DNA of 64,000 bases, taken from assembly GCF_028737315.1 (NCBI RefSeq), contig NZ_JAQZAO010000008.1, positions 266,952 to 330,951 of the forward strand, in the 5' to 3' direction. The notes beneath the pieces were generated by a model, which worked only from the letters and a program-made list of their open reading frames with translations, was not told the origin of the DNA and searched no databases. Source of the DNA: Actinomycetospora lemnae (GTDB taxonomy: Bacteria > Actinomycetota > Actinomycetes > Mycobacteriales > Pseudonocardiaceae). Shown here piece after piece: positions 30,904-38,144 of the stretch (its first letter is position 1; each line of letters starts with the position of its first letter). The translations under genes were made by a program, and so were the position numbers.

Positions 30904-31260
30904 CCAGCGCGTCGGTGGCGCTCGCTACATCGAGACCGCCGTTCGGGCTGCGTGACCGGCGACGCGGTCGCCGCGCGACGCTTCCGCTGGGCCGACAGGG
31001 TCTGTACGCCTGCCCGATCGGGTCACGGACCGCGCTGCCGAGCAGCAGAGCGGGAGCACTCACCGTCACCGAAAACCGACGTCCGGATTCCCTGCGTAAC
31101 CGCGCCGTGACCCCCTCGTTGACCACCCTGACGTCACTCCCGGGACCCATCAAGTCCCGGCGTGGCTCCGCGGGGACACCGTCCGCAGTCCGTGCCCGCA
31201 ACAGGCGGGCGGACCCATCCGGTCGTCCCGCTCCCCGACACAGCTCTACGAGGAGTTCAC
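30904..31260. other. Gene-free leader of the small secreted-protein array
   Basis: 357 nt with no credible gene. It holds the promoter of the tesB-like gene on the left, and on the right the sigma-BldN-like promoter at 31095-31122 and an 11-nt GCTCCCCGACA box at 31230, 21 nt before the first GTG. Confidence 0.7.
31095..31122 (+). promoter_or_regulatory. Promoter of secreted-protein gene 1, sigma-BldN-like
   Basis: CGTAAC (-35) and CGTTGA (-10), spaced by 16 nt. This matches the consensus I recall for the Streptomyces developmental sigma factor BldN, which drives chaplin and rodlin genes. The start of transcription would be near 31130, giving a 130-nt leader. Confidence 0.65.
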
Positions 31261-31557
31261 GTGATCAAGAAGCTGGGTGTCGTGACGGTCGGCGTGGCCG
31301 CCGGCCTCATGGCCGCCGCCCCGTTCGCCTCCGCCACCGAGGGCGGGCACCACCACGACGGCGAGCACAAGAGCTCCGGCTCCTGCAACGTCACCGGCGG
31401 CTCGGCCGAGGCCAACGGCGGCATCGACGGCGACTCGTTCGCCGGCAACCTGCTCGCGCAGGCCCCGGTCGGTGGCGCCAACGCCCTGAACATCGTCTGC
31501 AACGACATCCTCAACGACAACGTCAGCGGCAACGCCGTCGACGTCGACGTCCTCTGA
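31261..31557 (+). CDS. Small secreted two-cysteine protein 1 (chaplin/rodlin-like array)
   Basis: 98 residues. Residues 1-25 are a signal peptide (MIKKLGVVTVGVAAGLMAAA, cut after ASA). A His/Asp-rich linker follows, then the array core: Cys42, TGGSAEANGGIDGDSFAGN, QAPVGGAN and Cys80 in IVCNDI. The 38-residue Cys-Cys spacing is kept across the array. Chaplin-like features are the size, the GN-rich core and the single Cys pair; direct chaplin homology is not proven. GAGGAG precedes the GTG. Shares a 110-nt identical stretch with gene 4. Confidence 0.8.
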   Translation: MIKKLGVVTVGVAAGLMAAAPFASATEGGHHHDGEHKSSGSCNVTGGSAEANGGIDGDSFAGNLLAQAPVGGANALNIVCNDILNDNVSGNAVDVDVL

Positions 31558-31573
31558 GGACTGCACGGCGAGC

Positions 31574-31603
31574 GGACGAGCCGCGCTGACGCGCGGCTCG
31601 TCC
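31574..31603. terminator. Terminator of secreted-protein gene 1
   Basis: 12-bp arms GGACGAGCCGCG/CGCGGCTCGTCC around CTGACG, 17 nt after the stop. It differs in sequence from the other array terminators. Confidence 0.8.
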
Positions 31604-31674
31604 CGGCGGCTCGGGACCCGATCCGTCACCTGCACGACCACTCGAGCAGTACCGACGATCTCCTTGGGGGAAAC

Positions 31675-31995
31675 ATGTTCAAGAAGGCAGGCGTCGTCAC
31701 CGTCGCCGTCACCGCGGGCCTGCTCGCGGCCGCGCCCTTCGCCTCGGCCGGCGAGGCGCACAGCGACGACCACGACCACGACCACAAGAAGAAGAGCCAC
31801 CACCACGACGACAGCTCGGACTGCAACGTCACCGGTGGCTCCGCCGAGGCCAACGGCGGCATCAGCGGCGACTCGGTGCTGGGCAACGTCCTCGCCCAGG
31901 CGCCGATCGGTGGGGCCAACATCGGCAACATCGTCTGCAACGACATCCTGAACGACAACCTCAGCGGCAACAGCGTCGCCCTCGACCTGCTCTGA
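31675..31995 (+). CDS. Small secreted two-cysteine protein 2 (array)
   Basis: 106 residues. Signal peptide MFKKAGVVTVAVTAGLLAAA, cut after ASA. The linker is the most His/Asp/Lys-rich in the array (HSDDHDHDHKKKSHHHDD) and could bind metal ions. Core Cys50 and Cys88 keep the 38-residue spacing, and the motif reads GNVLAQAPIGGAN. Unlike the others it has no CGTTGA promoter in its leader; it begins with GGGGGAAAC before the ATG, so it may be read through from gene 1 or use another sigma factor. Confidence 0.8.
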   Translation: MFKKAGVVTVAVTAGLLAAAPFASAGEAHSDDHDHDHKKKSHHHDDSSDCNVTGGSAEANGGISGDSVLGNVLAQAPIGGANIGNIVCNDILNDNLSGNSVALDLL

Positions 31996-32037
31996 GGTCC
32001 TGACGACGTCCCGCGAGGACGTCCGCCGTACGACGAC

Positions 32038-32073
32038 GAAGGCCCGGCCATCCGATCGGTGGCCGGGCCTTCG
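32038..32073. terminator. Terminator of secreted-protein gene 2
   Basis: GAAGGCCCGGCCA pairs with TGGCCGGGCCTTC around TCCGATCGG. This stem is repeated almost exactly after gene 4. Confidence 0.85.
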
Positions 32074-32131
32074 TGCGTTCCGGGATCGTCCGGCGTGATC
32101 CGCCCCGATCGGGCGTAAGCCCCGATGAGGT

Positions 32132-32160
32132 CGTCACCAAACACATCACGTCCTCGTTGC
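32132..32160 (+). promoter_or_regulatory. Promoter of secreted-protein gene 3, sigma-BldN-like
   Basis: CGTCAC (-35, five of six matches to CGTAAC) and CGTTGC (-10) with a 17-nt spacer. Followed by CCGTTCGAG, close to the CCGTCCGAG that follows the -10 in genes 4, 6 and 7. Confidence 0.5.
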
Positions 32161-32226
32161 TCCGTTCGAGGCGGGCTCAGCCATTCGGTCCCGCCGCTGC
32201 TCCCCCGACACCTTCCAGGAGTTCTC

Positions 32227-32562
32227 GTGCTGAAGAAGATGGGCGTCGTCACCGTCGGCGTCTCCGCCGGCCTGCTGGTCGCCGCGCCGTTCGCCTCCGC
32301 CCACGAGTCGGGCCACGACTCGGACCACGAGCGCCACGGCGCGGGCTCGGACTGCAACGTCACCGGCGGCTCGGCCGAGGCCAACGGCGGCATCGACGGC
32401 GACTCGTTCGCCGGGAACGTCCTCGCGCAGGCCCCGGTCGGTGGCGCCAACGCCCTGAACGTCGTCTGCAACGACATCCTCAACGACAACCTCAGCGGCA
32501 ACACCGTCGACGTCGAGATCGGCGGCGGCCTCCTGCCCGAGCTGCCCGCGCCGCCGGTGTAG
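32227..32562 (+). CDS. Small secreted two-cysteine protein 3 (array)
   Basis: 111 residues. Signal peptide VLKKMGVVTVGVSAGLLVAA, cut after ASA. His/Asp/Glu-rich linker, then Cys43 and Cys81 (38 apart) in the shared core. A short hydrophobic/Pro tail GGGLLPELPAPPV ends the protein. AGGAG lies 6 nt before the GTG. The core DNA is near-identical to gene 1 but the tail is unique. Confidence 0.8.
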   Translation: MLKKMGVVTVGVSAGLLVAAPFASAHESGHDSDHERHGAGSDCNVTGGSAEANGGIDGDSFAGNVLAQAPVGGANALNVVCNDILNDNLSGNTVDVEIGGGLLPELPAPPV

Positions 32563-32577
32563 GTCCTGACGGACGCC

Positions 32578-32615
32578 ACGACGGCCCGGCCACCGCACGG
32601 TGGCCGGGCCGTCGT
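32578..32615. terminator. Terminator of secreted-protein gene 3
   Basis: ACGACGGCCCGGCCACCG pairs with CGGTGGCCGGGCCGTCGT around a 2-nt loop region, 16 nt after the stop. Confidence 0.85.
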
Positions 32616-32673
32616 GCTGTCGAGGGCCGATCCGGCGCGCTGTCCCTCCTTCGGGTGTCGCGACGCGGCCGGT

Positions 32674-32701
32674 CGTGCCGCCGGCGTCGCGCTCTCGTTG
32701 A
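32674..32701 (+). promoter_or_regulatory. Promoter of secreted-protein gene 4, sigma-BldN-like
   Basis: CGTGCC (-35, four of six) and CGTTGA (-10), 16-nt spacer, then GCCGTCCGAG. The -10 region is identical to that of genes 6 and 7 over at least 15 nt. Confidence 0.5.
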
Positions 32702-32777
32702 GCCGTCCGAGGCGTGCCCGGGTGCTCATCATCCGCTCGGCCCACGCCCGCTCCCCGACAGACACTCAGGAGTTCGC

Positions 32778-33176
32778 ATGCTGAAGAAGATGGGCGTCGT
32801 CACCGTCGGCGTCACCGCGGGCCTGCTGGCCGCCGCGCCGTTCGCCTCCGCCACCGAGGGCGGGCACCACCACGACGGCGAGCACAAGAGCTCCGGCTCC
32901 TGCAACGTCACCGGCGGCTCGGCCGAGGCCAACGGCGGCATCGACGGCGACTCGTTCCTGGGCAACACCCTCGTGCAGGCCCCGATCGGCGGCGCCAACC
33001 TGGCCAACATCGTCTGCAACGACATCCTCAACGACAACCTCAGCGGCAACACCGTCGAGGTGAGCGTCCTCAGCGCGGACGAGGAGGAGACCGAGGAGCC
33101 CGGCGGCGTCGACATCGATCCCGAGGACCTCAACGGCAACGGGGTGCCGGACGACGAGGAGATCACCGCCACCTGA
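32778..33176 (+). CDS. Small secreted two-cysteine protein 4 (array), with acidic calcium-loop-like tail
   Basis: 132 residues, longest in the array. Signal peptide MLKKMGVVTVGVTAGLLAAA, cut after ASA. Cys42 and Cys80 in the shared core. A 34-residue acidic tail follows, ending DIDPEDLNGNGVPDDEE, which resembles an EF-hand/dockerin-type D-x-N-x-N-G-x2-D-x2-E calcium loop. The 5' half matches gene 1 and the 3' core matches gene 6, so it looks mosaic. ATG follows CAGGAG. Confidence 0.82.
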   Translation: MLKKMGVVTVGVTAGLLAAAPFASATEGGHHHDGEHKSSGSCNVTGGSAEANGGIDGDSFLGNTLVQAPIGGANLANIVCNDILNDNLSGNTVEVSVLSADEEETEEPGGVDIDPEDLNGNGVPDDEEITAT

Positions 33177-33197
33177 GCATCCCCTCCCGCAGGACCC

Positions 33198-33234
33198 CGA
33201 AGGCCCGGTCATCCGATCGGTGGCCGGGCCTTCG
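33198..33234. terminator. Terminator of secreted-protein gene 4
   Basis: CGAAGGCCCGGTCA and TGGCCGGGCCTTCG around TCCGATCGG, nearly identical to the terminator after gene 2. Confidence 0.85.
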
Positions 33235-33323
33235 TCTGTCCGGGGTACGGCCTGAATTCCTTCGCCACCGCAGGTTTGCGCAGGGTGTCGTGTCACTCGT
33301 TCGGGGATCACCCGTTACCTGAT

Positions 33324-33351
33324 CGTTGCACGGTCCGCCTGACCTCGTTGT
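33324..33351 (+). promoter_or_regulatory. Promoter of secreted-protein gene 5, weak sigma-BldN-like
   Basis: CGTTGC (-35) and CGTTGT (-10) with a 16-nt spacer, followed by CCCTCCCGAG. The -10 keeps CGTTG; the -35 is weaker than in genes 1 and 6. Confidence 0.4.
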
Positions 33352-33424
33352 CCCTCCCGAGGCGCGGTGCCGTGCGCATCCGGTGCGCGGGTCGCGTCCG
33401 CTCCCCGACGAACAAGGAGTCGAC

Positions 33425-33763
33425 ATGCTGAAGAAGCTGGGCGTCGTCACCGTCGGCGTCTCCGCCGGCCTGCTGGTCGCCGCACCGTTCGCGTCCGCGA
33501 GCGAGTCGAGCCACGAGTCCGACCACCACGAGAGCCACGAGTCGAGCCACGAGTCGAGCTCGGACTGCAACGTCACCGGCGGCTCCGCCGAGGCCAACGG
33601 CGGCATCGACGGCGACTCGTTCCTGGGCAACGCCCTCGTGCAGGCCCCGGTCGGCGGCAGCAACCTGGGCAACGTCGTCTGCAACGACATCCTCAACGGG
33701 AACCTCAGCGGCAACAGCGTCGACGTCGACCTCGGCGGCGGCCTGCCTTCCCTCCCCGCCTAG
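33425..33763 (+). CDS. Small secreted two-cysteine protein 5 (array)
   Basis: 112 residues. Signal peptide MLKKLGVVTVGVSAGLLVAA, cut after ASA. The linker is a repeated S-H-E-S pattern (ESSHESDHHESHESSHESSS), the clearest repeat in the array. Cys48 and Cys86 are 38 apart. Ends in GGGLPSLPA, like gene 3. AAGGAG precedes the ATG. Confidence 0.82.
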   Translation: MLKKLGVVTVGVSAGLLVAAPFASASESSHESDHHESHESSHESSSDCNVTGGSAEANGGIDGDSFLGNALVQAPVGGSNLGNVVCNDILNGNLSGNSVDVDLGGGLPSLPA

Positions 33764-33782
33764 GAGCGCGCAAGCGCACCAG

Positions 33783-33820
33783 CGACGGCCCGGCCACCCA
33801 CGGGGTGGCCGGGTCGTCGT
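33783..33820. terminator. Terminator of secreted-protein gene 5
   Basis: CGACGGCCCGGCCACCC and GGGTGGCCGGGTCGTCG around a short loop; one G-U type mismatch. Confidence 0.8.
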
Positions 33821-33892
33821 GTGTCGGCGTGGTTCATCGGCGCCGTGTTCCCCGGCCTCCATCCCACGATCGGGGGCATCGGGGCGGAAACC

Positions 33893-33920
33893 GGTAACAC
33901 CGGCATGACCACCTCGTTGA
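33893..33920 (+). promoter_or_regulatory. Promoter of secreted-protein gene 6, sigma-BldN-like
   Basis: GGTAAC (-35) and CGTTGA (-10), 16-nt spacer, followed by GCCGTCCGAG. With gene 1 this is the closest match to the BldN-type consensus. Confidence 0.65.
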
Positions 33921-33994
33921 GCCGTCCGAGCGTGGGGGCGCACTCCCCAGCCATCCAGCCCACGCCGCTCCCCGACACAACCTCTGGAGTTCTC

Positions 33995-34375
33995 GTGCTG
34001 AAGAAGCTCAGCGTCGTCACCGTCGGCGTCTCGGCGGGCCTGCTGGTCGCCGCCCCGTTCGCGTCCGCCCACGAGTCGGGCCACCACGGTCACCACAAGC
34101 ACCACGACGCCAGCGCCGACTGCAACGTCACCGGCGGCTCGGCCGAGGCCAACGGCGGCATCGACGGCGACTCGTTCCTGGGCAACGCCCTCGTGCAGGC
34201 CCCGATCGGCGGCGCCAACCTGGCCAACATCGTCTGCAACGACATCCTCAACGGCAACCTCAGCGGCAACGTCGTCGACGTGAACGTGCTGAGCCCCGAG
34301 GTCGCGGCGCCCGTCGAGGAGGAGGAAGGGGAGGCCCCGGTCGCGAACCCGCTCGAGGGCGCTCCGACCGCCTGA
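33995..34375 (+). CDS. Small secreted two-cysteine protein 6 (array)
   Basis: 126 residues. Signal peptide VLKKLSVVTVGVSAGLLVAA, cut after ASA. His-rich linker (HESGHHGHHKHHDASAD) then Cys43 and Cys81. A 28-residue acidic tail (SPEVAAPVEEEEGEAPVANP) extends the core. TGGAG precedes the GTG. Core DNA is close to gene 4. Confidence 0.82.
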   Translation: MLKKLSVVTVGVSAGLLVAAPFASAHESGHHGHHKHHDASADCNVTGGSAEANGGIDGDSFLGNALVQAPIGGANLANIVCNDILNGNLSGNVVDVNVLSPEVAAPVEEEEGEAPVANPLEGAPTA

Positions 34376-34392
34376 GCAACATCTGGTGCTCA

Positions 34393-34430
34393 CGAAGGGC
34401 CCGGTCACCACGCGGTGGCCGGGCCTTCGT
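34393..34430. terminator. Terminator of secreted-protein gene 6
   Basis: CGAAGGGCCCGGTCACC and GGTGGCCGGGCCTTCG around ACGC. Confidence 0.83.
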
Positions 34431-34481
34431 CTGCTCCGGGCCCGAGGTTGATCCCCCGATCGGGTCGATCTCACCCACGCG

Positions 34482-34509
34482 GATCACGAAGACATCACGG
34501 CCTCGTTGA
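34482..34509 (+). promoter_or_regulatory. Promoter of secreted-protein gene 7, weak sigma-BldN-like
   Basis: GATCAC (-35, weak) and CGTTGA (-10), 16-nt spacer, followed by GCCGTCCGAG. The -10 and downstream box are intact although the gene product has diverged. Confidence 0.45.
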
Positions 34510-34585
34510 GCCGTCCGAGACCACGGCGCCGCGCTCCTCCACCGTCCGGCGCCGTTCCCTTCCCCCGAGCCACACAGGAGTCCCC

Positions 34586-34882
34586 GTGCTGAAGAAGCTG
34601 GGCGTCGTCACCGTCGGCGTCACCGCCGGCCTGCTCGCCGCCGCGCCGTTCGCGTCGGCCGAGTCGCACATCGACGAGAACAACAACGTCACGTCCGAGG
34701 GCAGCAACATCGGCGTCGACACGGGCAACCGCATCGGCCAGGGCAACGGCCAGGGCAACACGTTCAACGGCGTGGAGGTGCCCGGCCTGCCGGACGCGCC
34801 GACCCTGCCCGCGGTGCCGCCGCTCTCCGACTTCCTGCCCGAGCTGCCGAGCCAGTTCGAGCTCCCGGGCATCCCCGCCTGA
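34586..34882 (+). CDS. Divergent secreted protein 7 of the array, without cysteines
   Basis: 98 residues. The signal peptide is that of the array (VLKKLGVVTVGVTAGLLAAA, ASA cut). The mature part has no Cys and lacks the TGGSAEANGG core; instead it is Asn/Gly-rich (NNNVTSEGSNIGVDTGNRIG, then GNGQGNTFNG) and ends with a Pro/Leu tail (LPELPSQFELPGIPA). Same promoter type and leader as its neighbours, so probably co-regulated. It may be a different partner of the same surface layer. Confidence 0.78.
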   Translation: MLKKLGVVTVGVTAGLLAAAPFASAESHIDENNNVTSEGSNIGVDTGNRIGQGNGQGNTFNGVEVPGLPDAPTLPAVPPLSDFLPELPSQFELPGIPA

Positions 34883-34899: not shown

Positions 34900-34937
34900 G
34901 ACGGGCCCGGTCCACCGCTCGGTGGGCCGGGCCCGTT
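34900..34937. terminator. Terminator of secreted-protein gene 7
   Basis: GACGGGCCCGGTCCACCG pairs with CGGTGGGCCGGGCCCGT in the short gap before the convergent MFS-UspA gene. Confidence 0.83.
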
Positions 34938-37203: not shown

Positions 37204-37896
37204 TCAGGAGCCGAACGAGAGCAGCGACGGCGAGGACGACGACGCGTCGCCGAACGAGAGCAGCGACGTCGCGCCCGAGACGGTGGTGCCGAGGCCGCCG
37301 ACGACGCCGCCGAGCAGGCCGCCATCGCGTCCACCACCCGAGCCCTCCGAGCCCTCCGAGCCCTCCGAACCGCCCGACCCACCGGGGTCACCCGAGCCAC
37401 CGGACCCGCCCGAGCCGCCGGAACCGCCGCCGGCACCCCCGCCCGATGCCCCGGAACCCTGCGAGCCGCCGCCCGAACCGGACCCGCCACCCGAGGCGCG
37501 GATCGGGGTGTCGCCGTCGCGGGCGGCGCTCGCCGTACGCGCGGAGCCGTCGGTGCGCGTCGCCCGACGGGCGGGCGCGGCGTCGGCGTCGGCCCGCCCA
37601 CCGGTGCGGGTGCCGACGGTGCCGGCGGGCCGGCCGAGGCCGACGGGGTCGCCGGTGGACGCGAGGTCGAGCACCTGGACCGGGGCCGGCGGCACACCCG
37701 GCGCGAGGGGCAGCGAGGCCGCGGGAGCCGTGCCGCCGCCGCCCGGCGCGGGCGGTGCCAGGGGCGCGTCGGAGCTGACGGGGCTCATCACCACGGAGCC
37801 GATCCCGATCGCGCCGACGGTGGCGACCAGCGGGAGCGCGCCGAGCGCGACCCGGGCGCGCGTCGCGGACGACGCCCCCATCTGGTGCCTGCCCAT
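37204..37896 (-). CDS. Gly/Ser-rich secreted or surface protein
   Basis: 230 residues. Residues 12-35 form a membrane or signal segment (VALGALPLVATVGAIGIGSV). A Pro/Ala region follows, then a long low-complexity block of GGS and GSEGSEG repeats (about residues 140-190) and a hydrophobic Gly-rich end (GGLLGGVVGGLG). The repeats read as an elastic cell-surface linker. No catalytic motif. ATG follows GGAGAG. Confidence 0.6.
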   Translation of the reverse strand: MGRHQMGASSATRARVALGALPLVATVGAIGIGSVVMSPVSSDAPLAPPAPGGGGTAPAASLPLAPGVPPAPVQVLDLASTGDPVGLGRPAGTVGTRTGGRADADAAPARRATRTDGSARTASAARDGDTPIRASGGGSGSGGGSQGSGASGGGAGGGSGGSGGSGGSGDPGGSGGSEGSEGSEGSGGGRDGGLLGGVVGGLGTTVSGATSLLSFGDASSSSPSLLSFGS

Positions 37897-38144
37897 GTCT
37901 GGCTCTCCGTCCGTTCGTCCGGCCAGCTCGTCCGGTAGGGAGCGCACCACCGATCGGGTGACTGCTCCTCCGGAACGCTCAACGGCCGTCACGGCCGGAG
38001 GTTACGGACGCGGGCCGTCCGGGCTTGAGTCCATCGATGAGGTGAACCCGGGTCCTCACCCCACCCGGCGGCACCGGTTGGCCCCGGAGGCGGTCCGGCC
38101 ACAGACTGTGCGCCCGGCGGAGCGTCGACGAGGAGGTCACCACC

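What the first reader, a model, noticed from the sequence alone, without database searches (positions are those of the whole stretch)
31261..34882. Seven-gene tandem array of small secreted proteins with a shared two-cysteine core
Six of seven genes encode a signal peptide, a variable His/Asp/Ser linker and the same core with two Cys exactly 38 residues apart (TGGSAEANGG, QAP[IV]GG, CNDI). Size, Gly/Asn-rich core and a single Cys pair recall chaplins and rodlins, the amyloid-like coat proteins of aerial hyphae, but the sequence is not an obvious match to either. A seven-copy array in a non-Streptomyces actinobacterium could be an undescribed surface-layer system.
Basis: partly seen in the sequence, partly recalled or inferred. 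Interest (0 to 1): 0.85.

Follow-up and report, generated by a model that had tools for sequence, protein, structure and literature searches.

The report
BldN-promoter coat proteins, not chaplins
A row of seven genes for small, predicted secreted proteins in an Actinomycetospora genome matches no family in the protein libraries searched, yet six of the seven carry promoter-like sites resembling those that in Streptomyces switch on the water-repellent coat of aerial hyphae, so these proteins likely form an equivalent coat in a genome where no chaplin gene was found.

Summary
The array is real: seven + strand genes (31261-34882), all with the same signal-peptide-like start, six with a conserved core carrying two Cys 38 residues apart. 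Two more full copies lie elsewhere in the genome. No Pfam or NCBIfam model matches above cut-off; chaplin and rodlin comparisons give no significant match. The family is typical of Actinomycetospora (14 of 16 genomes strong, one weak), with one distant relative in another genus of its family. The new evidence lies upstream: six of seven window genes carry sites like the published sigma-BldN consensus CGTAAC-N16-CGTTGA (gene 1 exactly; gene 3 at N17; genes 5 and 7 weakly). Across relatives, 23 of 30 strict-core genes that are not second in an array reach 10/12, against 0 of 7 second genes and 1 of 22 genes outside the strict core. The genome has a BldN orthologue (57-59% identity, hemA synteny, RsbN-like neighbour), and the motif also precedes its bldM-like gene. 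sigma-BldN drives chaplins and rodlins in Streptomyces; no chaplin domain passes cut-off here. Best reading: a developmental surface-coat family that works like chaplins but is not assignable to them. Localisation and assembly are untested.

The parts
31261..31557 (+). gene 1, core protein (98 aa, GTG start)
31675..31995 (+). gene 2, core protein (106 aa); no promoter-like box of its own, 117 nt after gene 1, likely read through from gene 1
32227..32562 (+). gene 3, core protein (111 aa)
32778..33176 (+). gene 4, core protein (132 aa)
33425..33763 (+). gene 5, core protein (112 aa)
33995..34375 (+). gene 6, core protein (126 aa)
34586..34882 (+). gene 7, same signal-peptide-like start, different mature part (GQGNGQGNTFNGVEVPG), conserved at the array end in relatives
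31095..31122 (+). sigma-BldN-type promoter-like site of gene 1, CGTAAC-N16-CGTTGA, 12 of 12
   Evidence: consensus from PMC2375139 passage
32132..32160 (+). promoter-like site of gene 3, CGTCAC-N17-CGTTGC, 10 of 12 (17-base spacer; best at N16 is 8 of 12)
32674..32701 (+). promoter-like site of gene 4, CGTGCC-N16-CGTTGA, 10 of 12
33324..33351 (+). promoter-like site of gene 5, CGTTGC-N16-CGTTGT, 9 of 12 (weak)
33893..33920 (+). promoter-like site of gene 6, GGTAAC-N16-CGTTGA, 11 of 12
34482..34509 (+). promoter-like site of gene 7, GATCAC-N16-CGTTGA, 9 of 12 (weak; an overlapping N18 reading scores 10)
31574..31603 (+). hairpin between genes 1 and 2 (different sequence from the others); terminator or attenuator
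   Evidence: z -3.75
32038..32072 (+). GC-rich hairpin after gene 2, terminator-like without U tract
   Evidence: z -5.65
32580..32613 (+). GC-rich hairpin after gene 3
   Evidence: z -6.21
33198..33234 (+). GC-rich hairpin after gene 4
   Evidence: z -6.40
33782..33820 (+). GC-rich hairpin after gene 5
   Evidence: z -6.16
34392..34430 (+). GC-rich hairpin after gene 6
   Evidence: z -5.78
34900..34937 (+). GC-rich hairpin after gene 7
   Evidence: z -6.28
37980..38006 (-). second site in the window matching CGTNAC-N16-CGTTG, upstream of a Gly/Ser-rich secreted-like ORF; possible co-regulated gene
37204..37896 (-). Gly/Ser-rich ORF (230 aa, no Pfam match) 83 nt downstream of that site; possible regulon member, not part of the array

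Best explanation
The array encodes a family of small, predicted secreted two-cysteine proteins whose upstream sites resemble the sigma-BldN promoter consensus and which likely assemble into the coat of aerial hyphae or spores, doing the job that chaplins do in Streptomyces. Proposed working: at the onset of aerial development the sigma factor BldN, released from its anti-sigma factor RsbN, would transcribe genes 1 and 3-7 from their own promoters, with gene 2 read through from gene 1 (inferred from promoter anatomy). The proteins would be exported by the Sec route and trimmed at A-x-A (inferred from sequence). The conserved, Lys/Arg-free Gly/Asn core, closed by a likely disulphide between the two Cys, would self-assemble at the cell surface, while the variable His/Asp/Ser linker and acidic tails would face water (inferred). 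Many similar paralogues would supply dose and mixed composition, as chaplin families do. Shown here: the array, its core, its sites, the BldN orthologue, the motif before the bldM-like gene, the lack of chaplin domains over cut-off in this genome, and the wide conservation in the genus. Not shown: transcription by sigma-BldN, secretion, disulphide, surface location, assembly.
For: Consensus CGTAACN16CGTTGA for BldN (PMC2375139 passage); sigma-BldN targets include bldM, chaplins and rodlins (PMC4125116 and PMC4255298 passages). Window: gene 1 site 12/12, gene 6 11/12, gene 4 10/12, gene 3 10/12 at N17, genes 5 and 7 9/12. 69 small secreted genes of own and related genomes: 10/12 or better in 24 of 69 at N16 against 0-5 of 69 at each of ten other spacers; permuted boxes mean 0.4, maximum 8. 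By class (68 of 69 counted): 23 of 30 strict-core genes that are not second in an array, 0 of 7 second genes, 0 of 9 gene-7 type, 1 of 22 genes outside the strict core; at 9/12 the figures are 25 of 30, 0 of 7, 8 of 9 and 5 of 22. Anchoring on CGTTG alone (29 core genes have one 40-200 nt upstream, 21 after dereplication), a -35 box CGTAAC emerges at the right distance. Divergent clade: 5 of 5 first genes have GGTCAC-N17-CGTTGA. Genome: CGTNAC-N16-CGTTG 14 hits against 2 for the reversed control; one lies before a bldM-like regulator. BldN orthologue: best hit 57-59% in 6 of 6 chaplin-rich genomes, next best at most 36%; hemA synteny and RsbN-like neighbour in the two of these loci examined. 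Exact 12/12 site before the best bldM match in 6 of 6 of those genomes. N16 sites of 10/12 or better before 5 of 16 chaplin genes from 16 chaplin-bearing genomes, against 0-1 of 16 at eight other spacers. No PF03777 over cut-off in own genome. Core: no Lys/Arg, weakly hydrophobic.
Against: No localisation, expression or assembly data. No significant chaplin or rodlin similarity. AlphaFold2 gave no confident fold (mean pLDDT 47.9). The core is only weakly hydrophobic (GRAVY 0.10-0.21, one chaplin domain 0.50) and the whole mature proteins are hydrophilic. LPxTG-type sortase signal in 0 of 69 genes, so no obvious anchor. Sites of genes 5 and 7 are weak. Of 15 family genes that the gene finder had missed, 1 reaches 10/12 at N16; the divergent clade's first genes use N17 and its downstream genes have none at N16, two of them 10/12 at another spacer. 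Relatives' promoters are not independent observations. How much true aerial mycelium the genus forms was not established from the papers seen.
Confidence: 0.55

Rival explanations
1. The proteins are highly diverged true chaplins (DUF320) whose homology is too weak for present profiles.
For: At least 4 of 120 listed homologues (of 303 found) carry the uniref labels 'Small secreted domain DUF320' or 'Chaplin'; short shared words (GN.(L/V)Q.P, LSGN.V) and the same type of promoter; against a 28-domain chaplin profile the family scores slightly above its shuffles (median 0.4 against -0.8 bits; 9 of 41 members beaten by at most 2 of 50 own shuffles), a faint signal.
Against: 0 of 43 members, those four included, listed PF03777 at E up to 10, HMMER filters on; best family score 5.0 bits; hhalign probability 8.9%, though the family profile is shallow (Neff 1.5); Cys 38 apart against 18 in the Streptomyces-type chaplin domains fetched.
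Confidence: 0.22
2. The proteins are extracellular metal binders: the His/Asp-rich linker chelates zinc, copper or nickel.
For: 4-7 His in linkers of 16-24 residues in the six window core genes; weak ZrgA similarity of gene 2, E 0.07, below cut-off.
Against: The linker is the variable part while the aligned core has no conserved His; no metal transporter or regulator inside the array; promoters are of the developmental type.
Confidence: 0.12
3. The sites belong to another ECF sigma factor with BldN-like specificity, and the proteins serve envelope stress or another non-developmental role.
For: The genome matched Sigma70_r2 at 44 places; the SigH motif GGGAACA-N16-CGTT quoted for M. tuberculosis is similar (passage).
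Against: Gene 1 has the same boxes as the Streptomyces bldM promoters; a clear BldN orthologue exists; the same motif lies before the bldM-like gene.
Confidence: 0.13
4. The proteins are secreted bacteriocin-like or competition factors expanded by rivalry.
For: Tandem paralogues with variable linkers; weak match of gene 2 to the YxzE putative bacteriocin model, E 0.014, below cut-off.
Against: No immunity or export gene inside the array; core strongly conserved in the genus; gene 2 and gene 7 types cluster by position across genomes.
Confidence: 0.04

Closest known systems
Chaplins (ChpA-H, DUF320/PF03777) of Streptomyces
   Same: Small secreted multi-copy proteins, usually two Cys, sigma-BldN control (PMC5618241, PMC4125116 passages)
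   Different: No PF03777 match, Cys 38 rather than 18 apart, less hydrophobic core, His/Asp linker, no LPxTG forms seen; only a faint, non-significant profile signal
Rodlins (RdlA, RdlB) of Streptomyces
   Same: Small secreted, MLKK-type start, two Cys, sigma-BldN targets in Streptomyces
   Different: Core family scores like its shuffles against a rodlin ORF found beside a chaplin gene (L190; recognised as a rodlin from recall). The gene-7 type scores 4.7-5.6 bits in six related sequences, with 0-1 of 50 own shuffles as good, too weak to call
sigma-BldN / RsbN / BldM developmental pathway
   Same: Orthologous sigma factor with hemA synteny and RsbN-like neighbour; bldM-like gene with the same promoter motif
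   Different: The presumed coat-gene targets are not assignable to chaplins or rodlins; a related clade uses a 17-base spacer

Membership tests
Chaplin (DUF320/PF03777) | One or more PF03777 domains (PMC5618241 passage) | tested here: not met
   0 of 43 members at E up to 10, HMMER filters on; own genome none over cut-off; own 28-domain profile: best family score 5.0 bits, only slightly above shuffles
Chaplin (DUF320/PF03777) | Small protein with N-terminal signal peptide | tested here: met
   Read from sequence; no predictor run
Chaplin (DUF320/PF03777) | Two Cys thought to form an intramolecular disulphide (all but ChpE; PMC5618241 passage) | tested here: inconclusive
   32 of 37 core proteins have two Cys, 5 have three, but spacing is 36-38; the bond cannot be tested here
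Chaplin (DUF320/PF03777) | Long forms with sortase signal | tested here: not met
   LPxTG/LPxAG in 0 of 69 small secreted genes examined
Chaplin (DUF320/PF03777) | Amyloid assembly, SDS-insoluble surface film, surface activity | not testable with these tools
   Needs purified protein or surface extracts; AlphaFold2 uninformative
Rodlin | Sequence similarity to RdlA/RdlB | tested here: not met
   phmmer with one rodlin ORF: 41 family members median 0.2 bits, shuffles 0.3; gene-7 type faint only
sigma-BldN regulon | CGTAAC-N16-CGTTGA upstream | tested here: met
   weak for genes 5 and 7, N17 for gene 3, absent for gene 2
sigma-BldN regulon | BldN orthologue over 50% identical with local synteny (PMC4255298 passage) | tested here: met
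   57-59% in 6 of 6 genomes; hemA and RsbN-like neighbours in 2 of 2 loci examined
sigma-BldN regulon | BldN-dependent transcription | not testable with these tools
   Needs mutant, start-site mapping or ChIP

The most novel reading that the evidence does not exclude
In Actinomycetospora the developmental switch was kept and the coat was swapped: sigma-BldN drives an unrelated, genus-specific set of two-cysteine proteins that builds the aerial or spore coat without any chaplin or rodlin, so the coat protein turns over in evolution while its regulator stays.
Probability: 0.4. Interest if true: 0.8.

Novelty: new variant of a known kind. Interest (0 to 1): 0.62.

Why it matters
[quoted passage not shown] PF03777 in 39 of 197 genomes of the class). 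What coats the aerial structures of the rest is open. Here the promoter points to a candidate coat protein without relying on protein homology. If right, sigma-BldN sites become a general way to find unrecognised coat proteins in other genera, and the family offers a new natural source of possibly surface-active, self-assembling proteins.

Tried and rejected
Chaplin homology: Pfam and NCBIfam scans, hhalign against 28 chaplin domains, own chaplin HMM with 50 shuffles per protein: no significant match, only a slight excess over shuffles, so 'is a chaplin' was dropped as a claim. I first read as 'no better than shuffles', which compared 70 real proteins with the best of 3500 shuffles; one search mends this, and for that reason I raised the diverged-chaplin rival from 0.20 to 0.22 and lowered the novel case from 0.42 to 0.40. 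Rodlin: phmmer with one rodlin ORF: nothing for the core family, a faint signal for the gene-7 type. Structure: AlphaFold2 on 43 rows, mean pLDDT 47.9, pTM 0.17, too poor for a fold search, so none was run. Sigma-70 promoter scan: 0 found; the terminator scan needs T runs and did not list the GC hairpins.

Papers: Actinomycetospora with chaplin 0 papers; chaplin with Pseudonocardia 6, seen as a listing: five look unrelated, one general actinomycete review (PMC8549240) was not read; chaplin, rodlin, Amycolatopsis 2; genus morphology not found in usable form. The original BldN paper is not held, and Bibb et al. 2012 was seen only as a reference. So any impression that this family is not in print rests in an open-access library only.

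Rows dropped: of the 40 related loci fetched, the start/signal regex found no gene in L147, L160, L161, L165, L171 and L177 and missed some in L162-L164. Fifteen missed genes were examined by coordinates: 1 of 15 reaches 10/12 at N16 (the distant relative in L165, 11/12), so adding them lowers the N16 share. One overlapping reading (L157, masked N stretch) was left out, which counts 68 of 69. The 22 genes outside the strict core include three divergent family members (L162-L164, with N17 sites) and, by my reading, four more distant core relatives (L166, L168); the one hit among the 22 is in L168.
Full report
What is there. The window holds seven tandem + strand genes, 31261-34882. All seven begin with nearly the same M[ILF]KK...AAPFASA signal-peptide-like segment. 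Genes 1-6 share a core of about 50 residues with two Cys 38 apart; gene 7 has another mature part and no Cys. Between signal and core lies a variable linker of 16-24 residues with 4-7 His; the core has no Lys or Arg and is weakly hydrophobic. Each gene is followed by a strong GC hairpin; those after genes 2-7 share the GGCCCGG...CCGGGCC type and the one after gene 1 differs. Pairwise comparison of same-length cores over nine genomes gave median pS 0.19 and pN 0.12, with pN below pS in 472 of 563 pairs, which are not independent.

Where it occurs. The genome (6.06 Mb, 30 contigs) has two more full copies, on C24 and C25, and a weaker match on C27 that proved to be another small secreted protein with two repeats. 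The 16 loci returned by a scan of 84,980 species genomes with strict patterns are all from Actinomycetospora. In a draw of 249 genomes of the own family, 15 of 16 same-genus genomes matched; one of these (G415) only weakly, so 14 of 16 strongly. Outside the genus 21 of 233 genomes matched at E up to 0.01, mostly over the signal peptide; one (G246) matched over nearly the full length, E 3.6e-15, and it has CGTCAC-N16-CGTTGA 128 nt upstream. In a tree without printed support values, gene 2 and gene 7 types of different genomes cluster by position; so do gene 1 types, with gene 4 of two genomes nested among them. The layout is thus probably older than these species.

It is not assignable to a known family. 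Pfam and NCBIfam give nothing above cut-off for the seven proteins, and none of 43 members lists PF03777 at E up to 10, although at least four of the 120 listed homologues bear chaplin or DUF320 labels in uniref. PF03777 is found over cut-off in 39 of 197 genomes of the class, but in neither the own genome nor the 16 other genomes of its order in that draw, none of which is of the own family. Against a profile from 28 chaplin domains the best family score is 5.0 bits; the family lies slightly above its shuffles (61% against 31% above 0 bits, median 0.4 against -0.8), a faint and non-significant signal. Against one rodlin the core family scores like its shuffles; six gene-7-type sequences reach 4.7-5.6 bits with 0-1 of 50 own shuffles as good.

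The promoter. The published sigma-BldN consensus is CGTAAC-N16-CGTTGA (PMC2375139, passage). Gene 1 has it exactly, 138 nt before the start; genes 6, 4, 5 and 7 have 11, 10, 9 and 9 of 12 at N16; gene 3 has 10 of 12 at N17; gene 2 has none. The two lone copies have CGTCAC-N16-CGTTGG and CGTGAC-N16-CGTTGG. In 69 small secreted genes from own and related genomes, 24 reach 10/12 at N16, while each of ten other spacers gives 0-5 and permuted boxes give on average 0.4, at most 8. The sites fall on the expected genes: 23 of 30 strict-core genes that are not second in an array, 0 of 7 second genes, 1 of 22 genes outside the strict core; the gene-7 type reaches 9/12 in 8 of 9 and never 10/12, while 5 of the 22 others also reach 9/12. 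Anchored on CGTTG alone, the -35 box appears at the right distance: in 21 dereplicated core promoters C15 G19 T19 A11 A14 C20, with weak conservation in most of the spacer apart from a TGAC-like element and the T before the -10 box. Results against: of fifteen genes that the gene finder had missed, one reaches 10/12 at N16; the divergent clade (five genomes) instead has GGTCAC-N17-CGTTGA before 5 of 5 first genes.

Is it BldN? The genome has an ECF sigma factor that is 57-59% identical to one gene in each of six chaplin-rich, Streptomyces-like genomes, the next best being at most 36%. In the own genome and the two genomes examined, hemA lies about 3-4 kb away in divergent orientation and an RsbN-like gene lies next to the sigma gene. 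That meets the criterion used for BldN in PMC4255298, over 50% identity with synteny (passage). The genome pattern CGTNAC-N16-CGTTG has 14 hits against 2 for the reversed pattern. By my reading of the downstream ORFs 3 are array-family genes, 1 a bldM-like regulator, 6 other secreted-like ORFs and 4 neither. In six of six Streptomyces-like genomes the best match to that regulator (52% identity, read as bldM) has an exact 12/12 site 127-130 nt upstream, in line with the bldM promoter named in PMC2375139. Five of 16 chaplin genes, one from each of 16 chaplin-bearing genomes, have N16 sites of 10/12 or better, eight other spacers 0-1.

Reading. sigma-BldN controls bldM, chaplins and rodlins in Streptomyces (PMC4125116, passage). 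In Actinomycetospora its likely sites stand before a multi-copy family of predicted secreted two-Cys proteins, and no chaplin domain passes cut-off in this genome. The simplest reading is that this family is the developmental coat. It would work like chaplins without being assignable to them. The weak points are the lack of any experiment, the modest hydrophobicity of the core and a structure prediction without confidence.

Sources. PMC2375139, PMC4125116, PMC4255298, PMC5618241, PMC6113628 and PMC12503092 were seen as passages only; other papers as search listings. The identification of L190 as a rodlin and of the regulators as BldM rests partly on recall of their sequence features; the promoter and orthology evidence is from the calls named.

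Noticed in passing
window 37204-37896 (-) with site 37980-38006: A Gly/Ser-rich secreted-like ORF without Pfam match has a CGTAAC-N16-CGTTG site 83 nt upstream; another ORF with such a site (L018) also has LSFG at its C terminus.
   Followed up: partly
L017:9158-9640 (-); relatives L167, L176, L172, L173, L181: A second small secreted family (MLKKAG start, two repeats such as GDQLIGINNTNIQAPINQLGILS, His/Asp/Arg-rich linkers) recurs in the genus without BldN-type sites of 10/12 or better.
   Followed up: partly
L180:1483-1827 and 2008-2355: Two adjacent small secreted proteins in another genus of the family carry C.DN.NVLGVQVP[IV]QD...C, which recalls the rodlin pattern C...PIQD...C; the first has no library match, and phmmer is not significant for either.
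   Followed up: partly
L169, L170, L174, L178, L179: MLKKA-type two-Cys small secreted proteins in another genus of the family (g95), without BldN-type sites of 10/12 or better within 230 nt.
   Followed up: partly
spacer of the array promoters, e.g. window 31108-31111: A TGAC-like element is conserved inside the 16-base spacer, possibly a second regulator's site.
   Followed up: no
window 34586-34882 and relatives of gene 7: The gene-7 type scores faintly against a rodlin ORF (4.7-5.6 bits, 0-1 of 50 own shuffles as good in six related sequences); too weak to call.
   Followed up: partly
window 31574-31603: The hairpin between genes 1 and 2 differs in sequence from the other six and may tune read-through into gene 2.
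   Followed up: no
contigs of related draft genomes (L143, L145, L149, L152): Several draft assemblies of relatives end within or next to the array, so copy numbers in drafts are probably underestimates.
   Followed up: no
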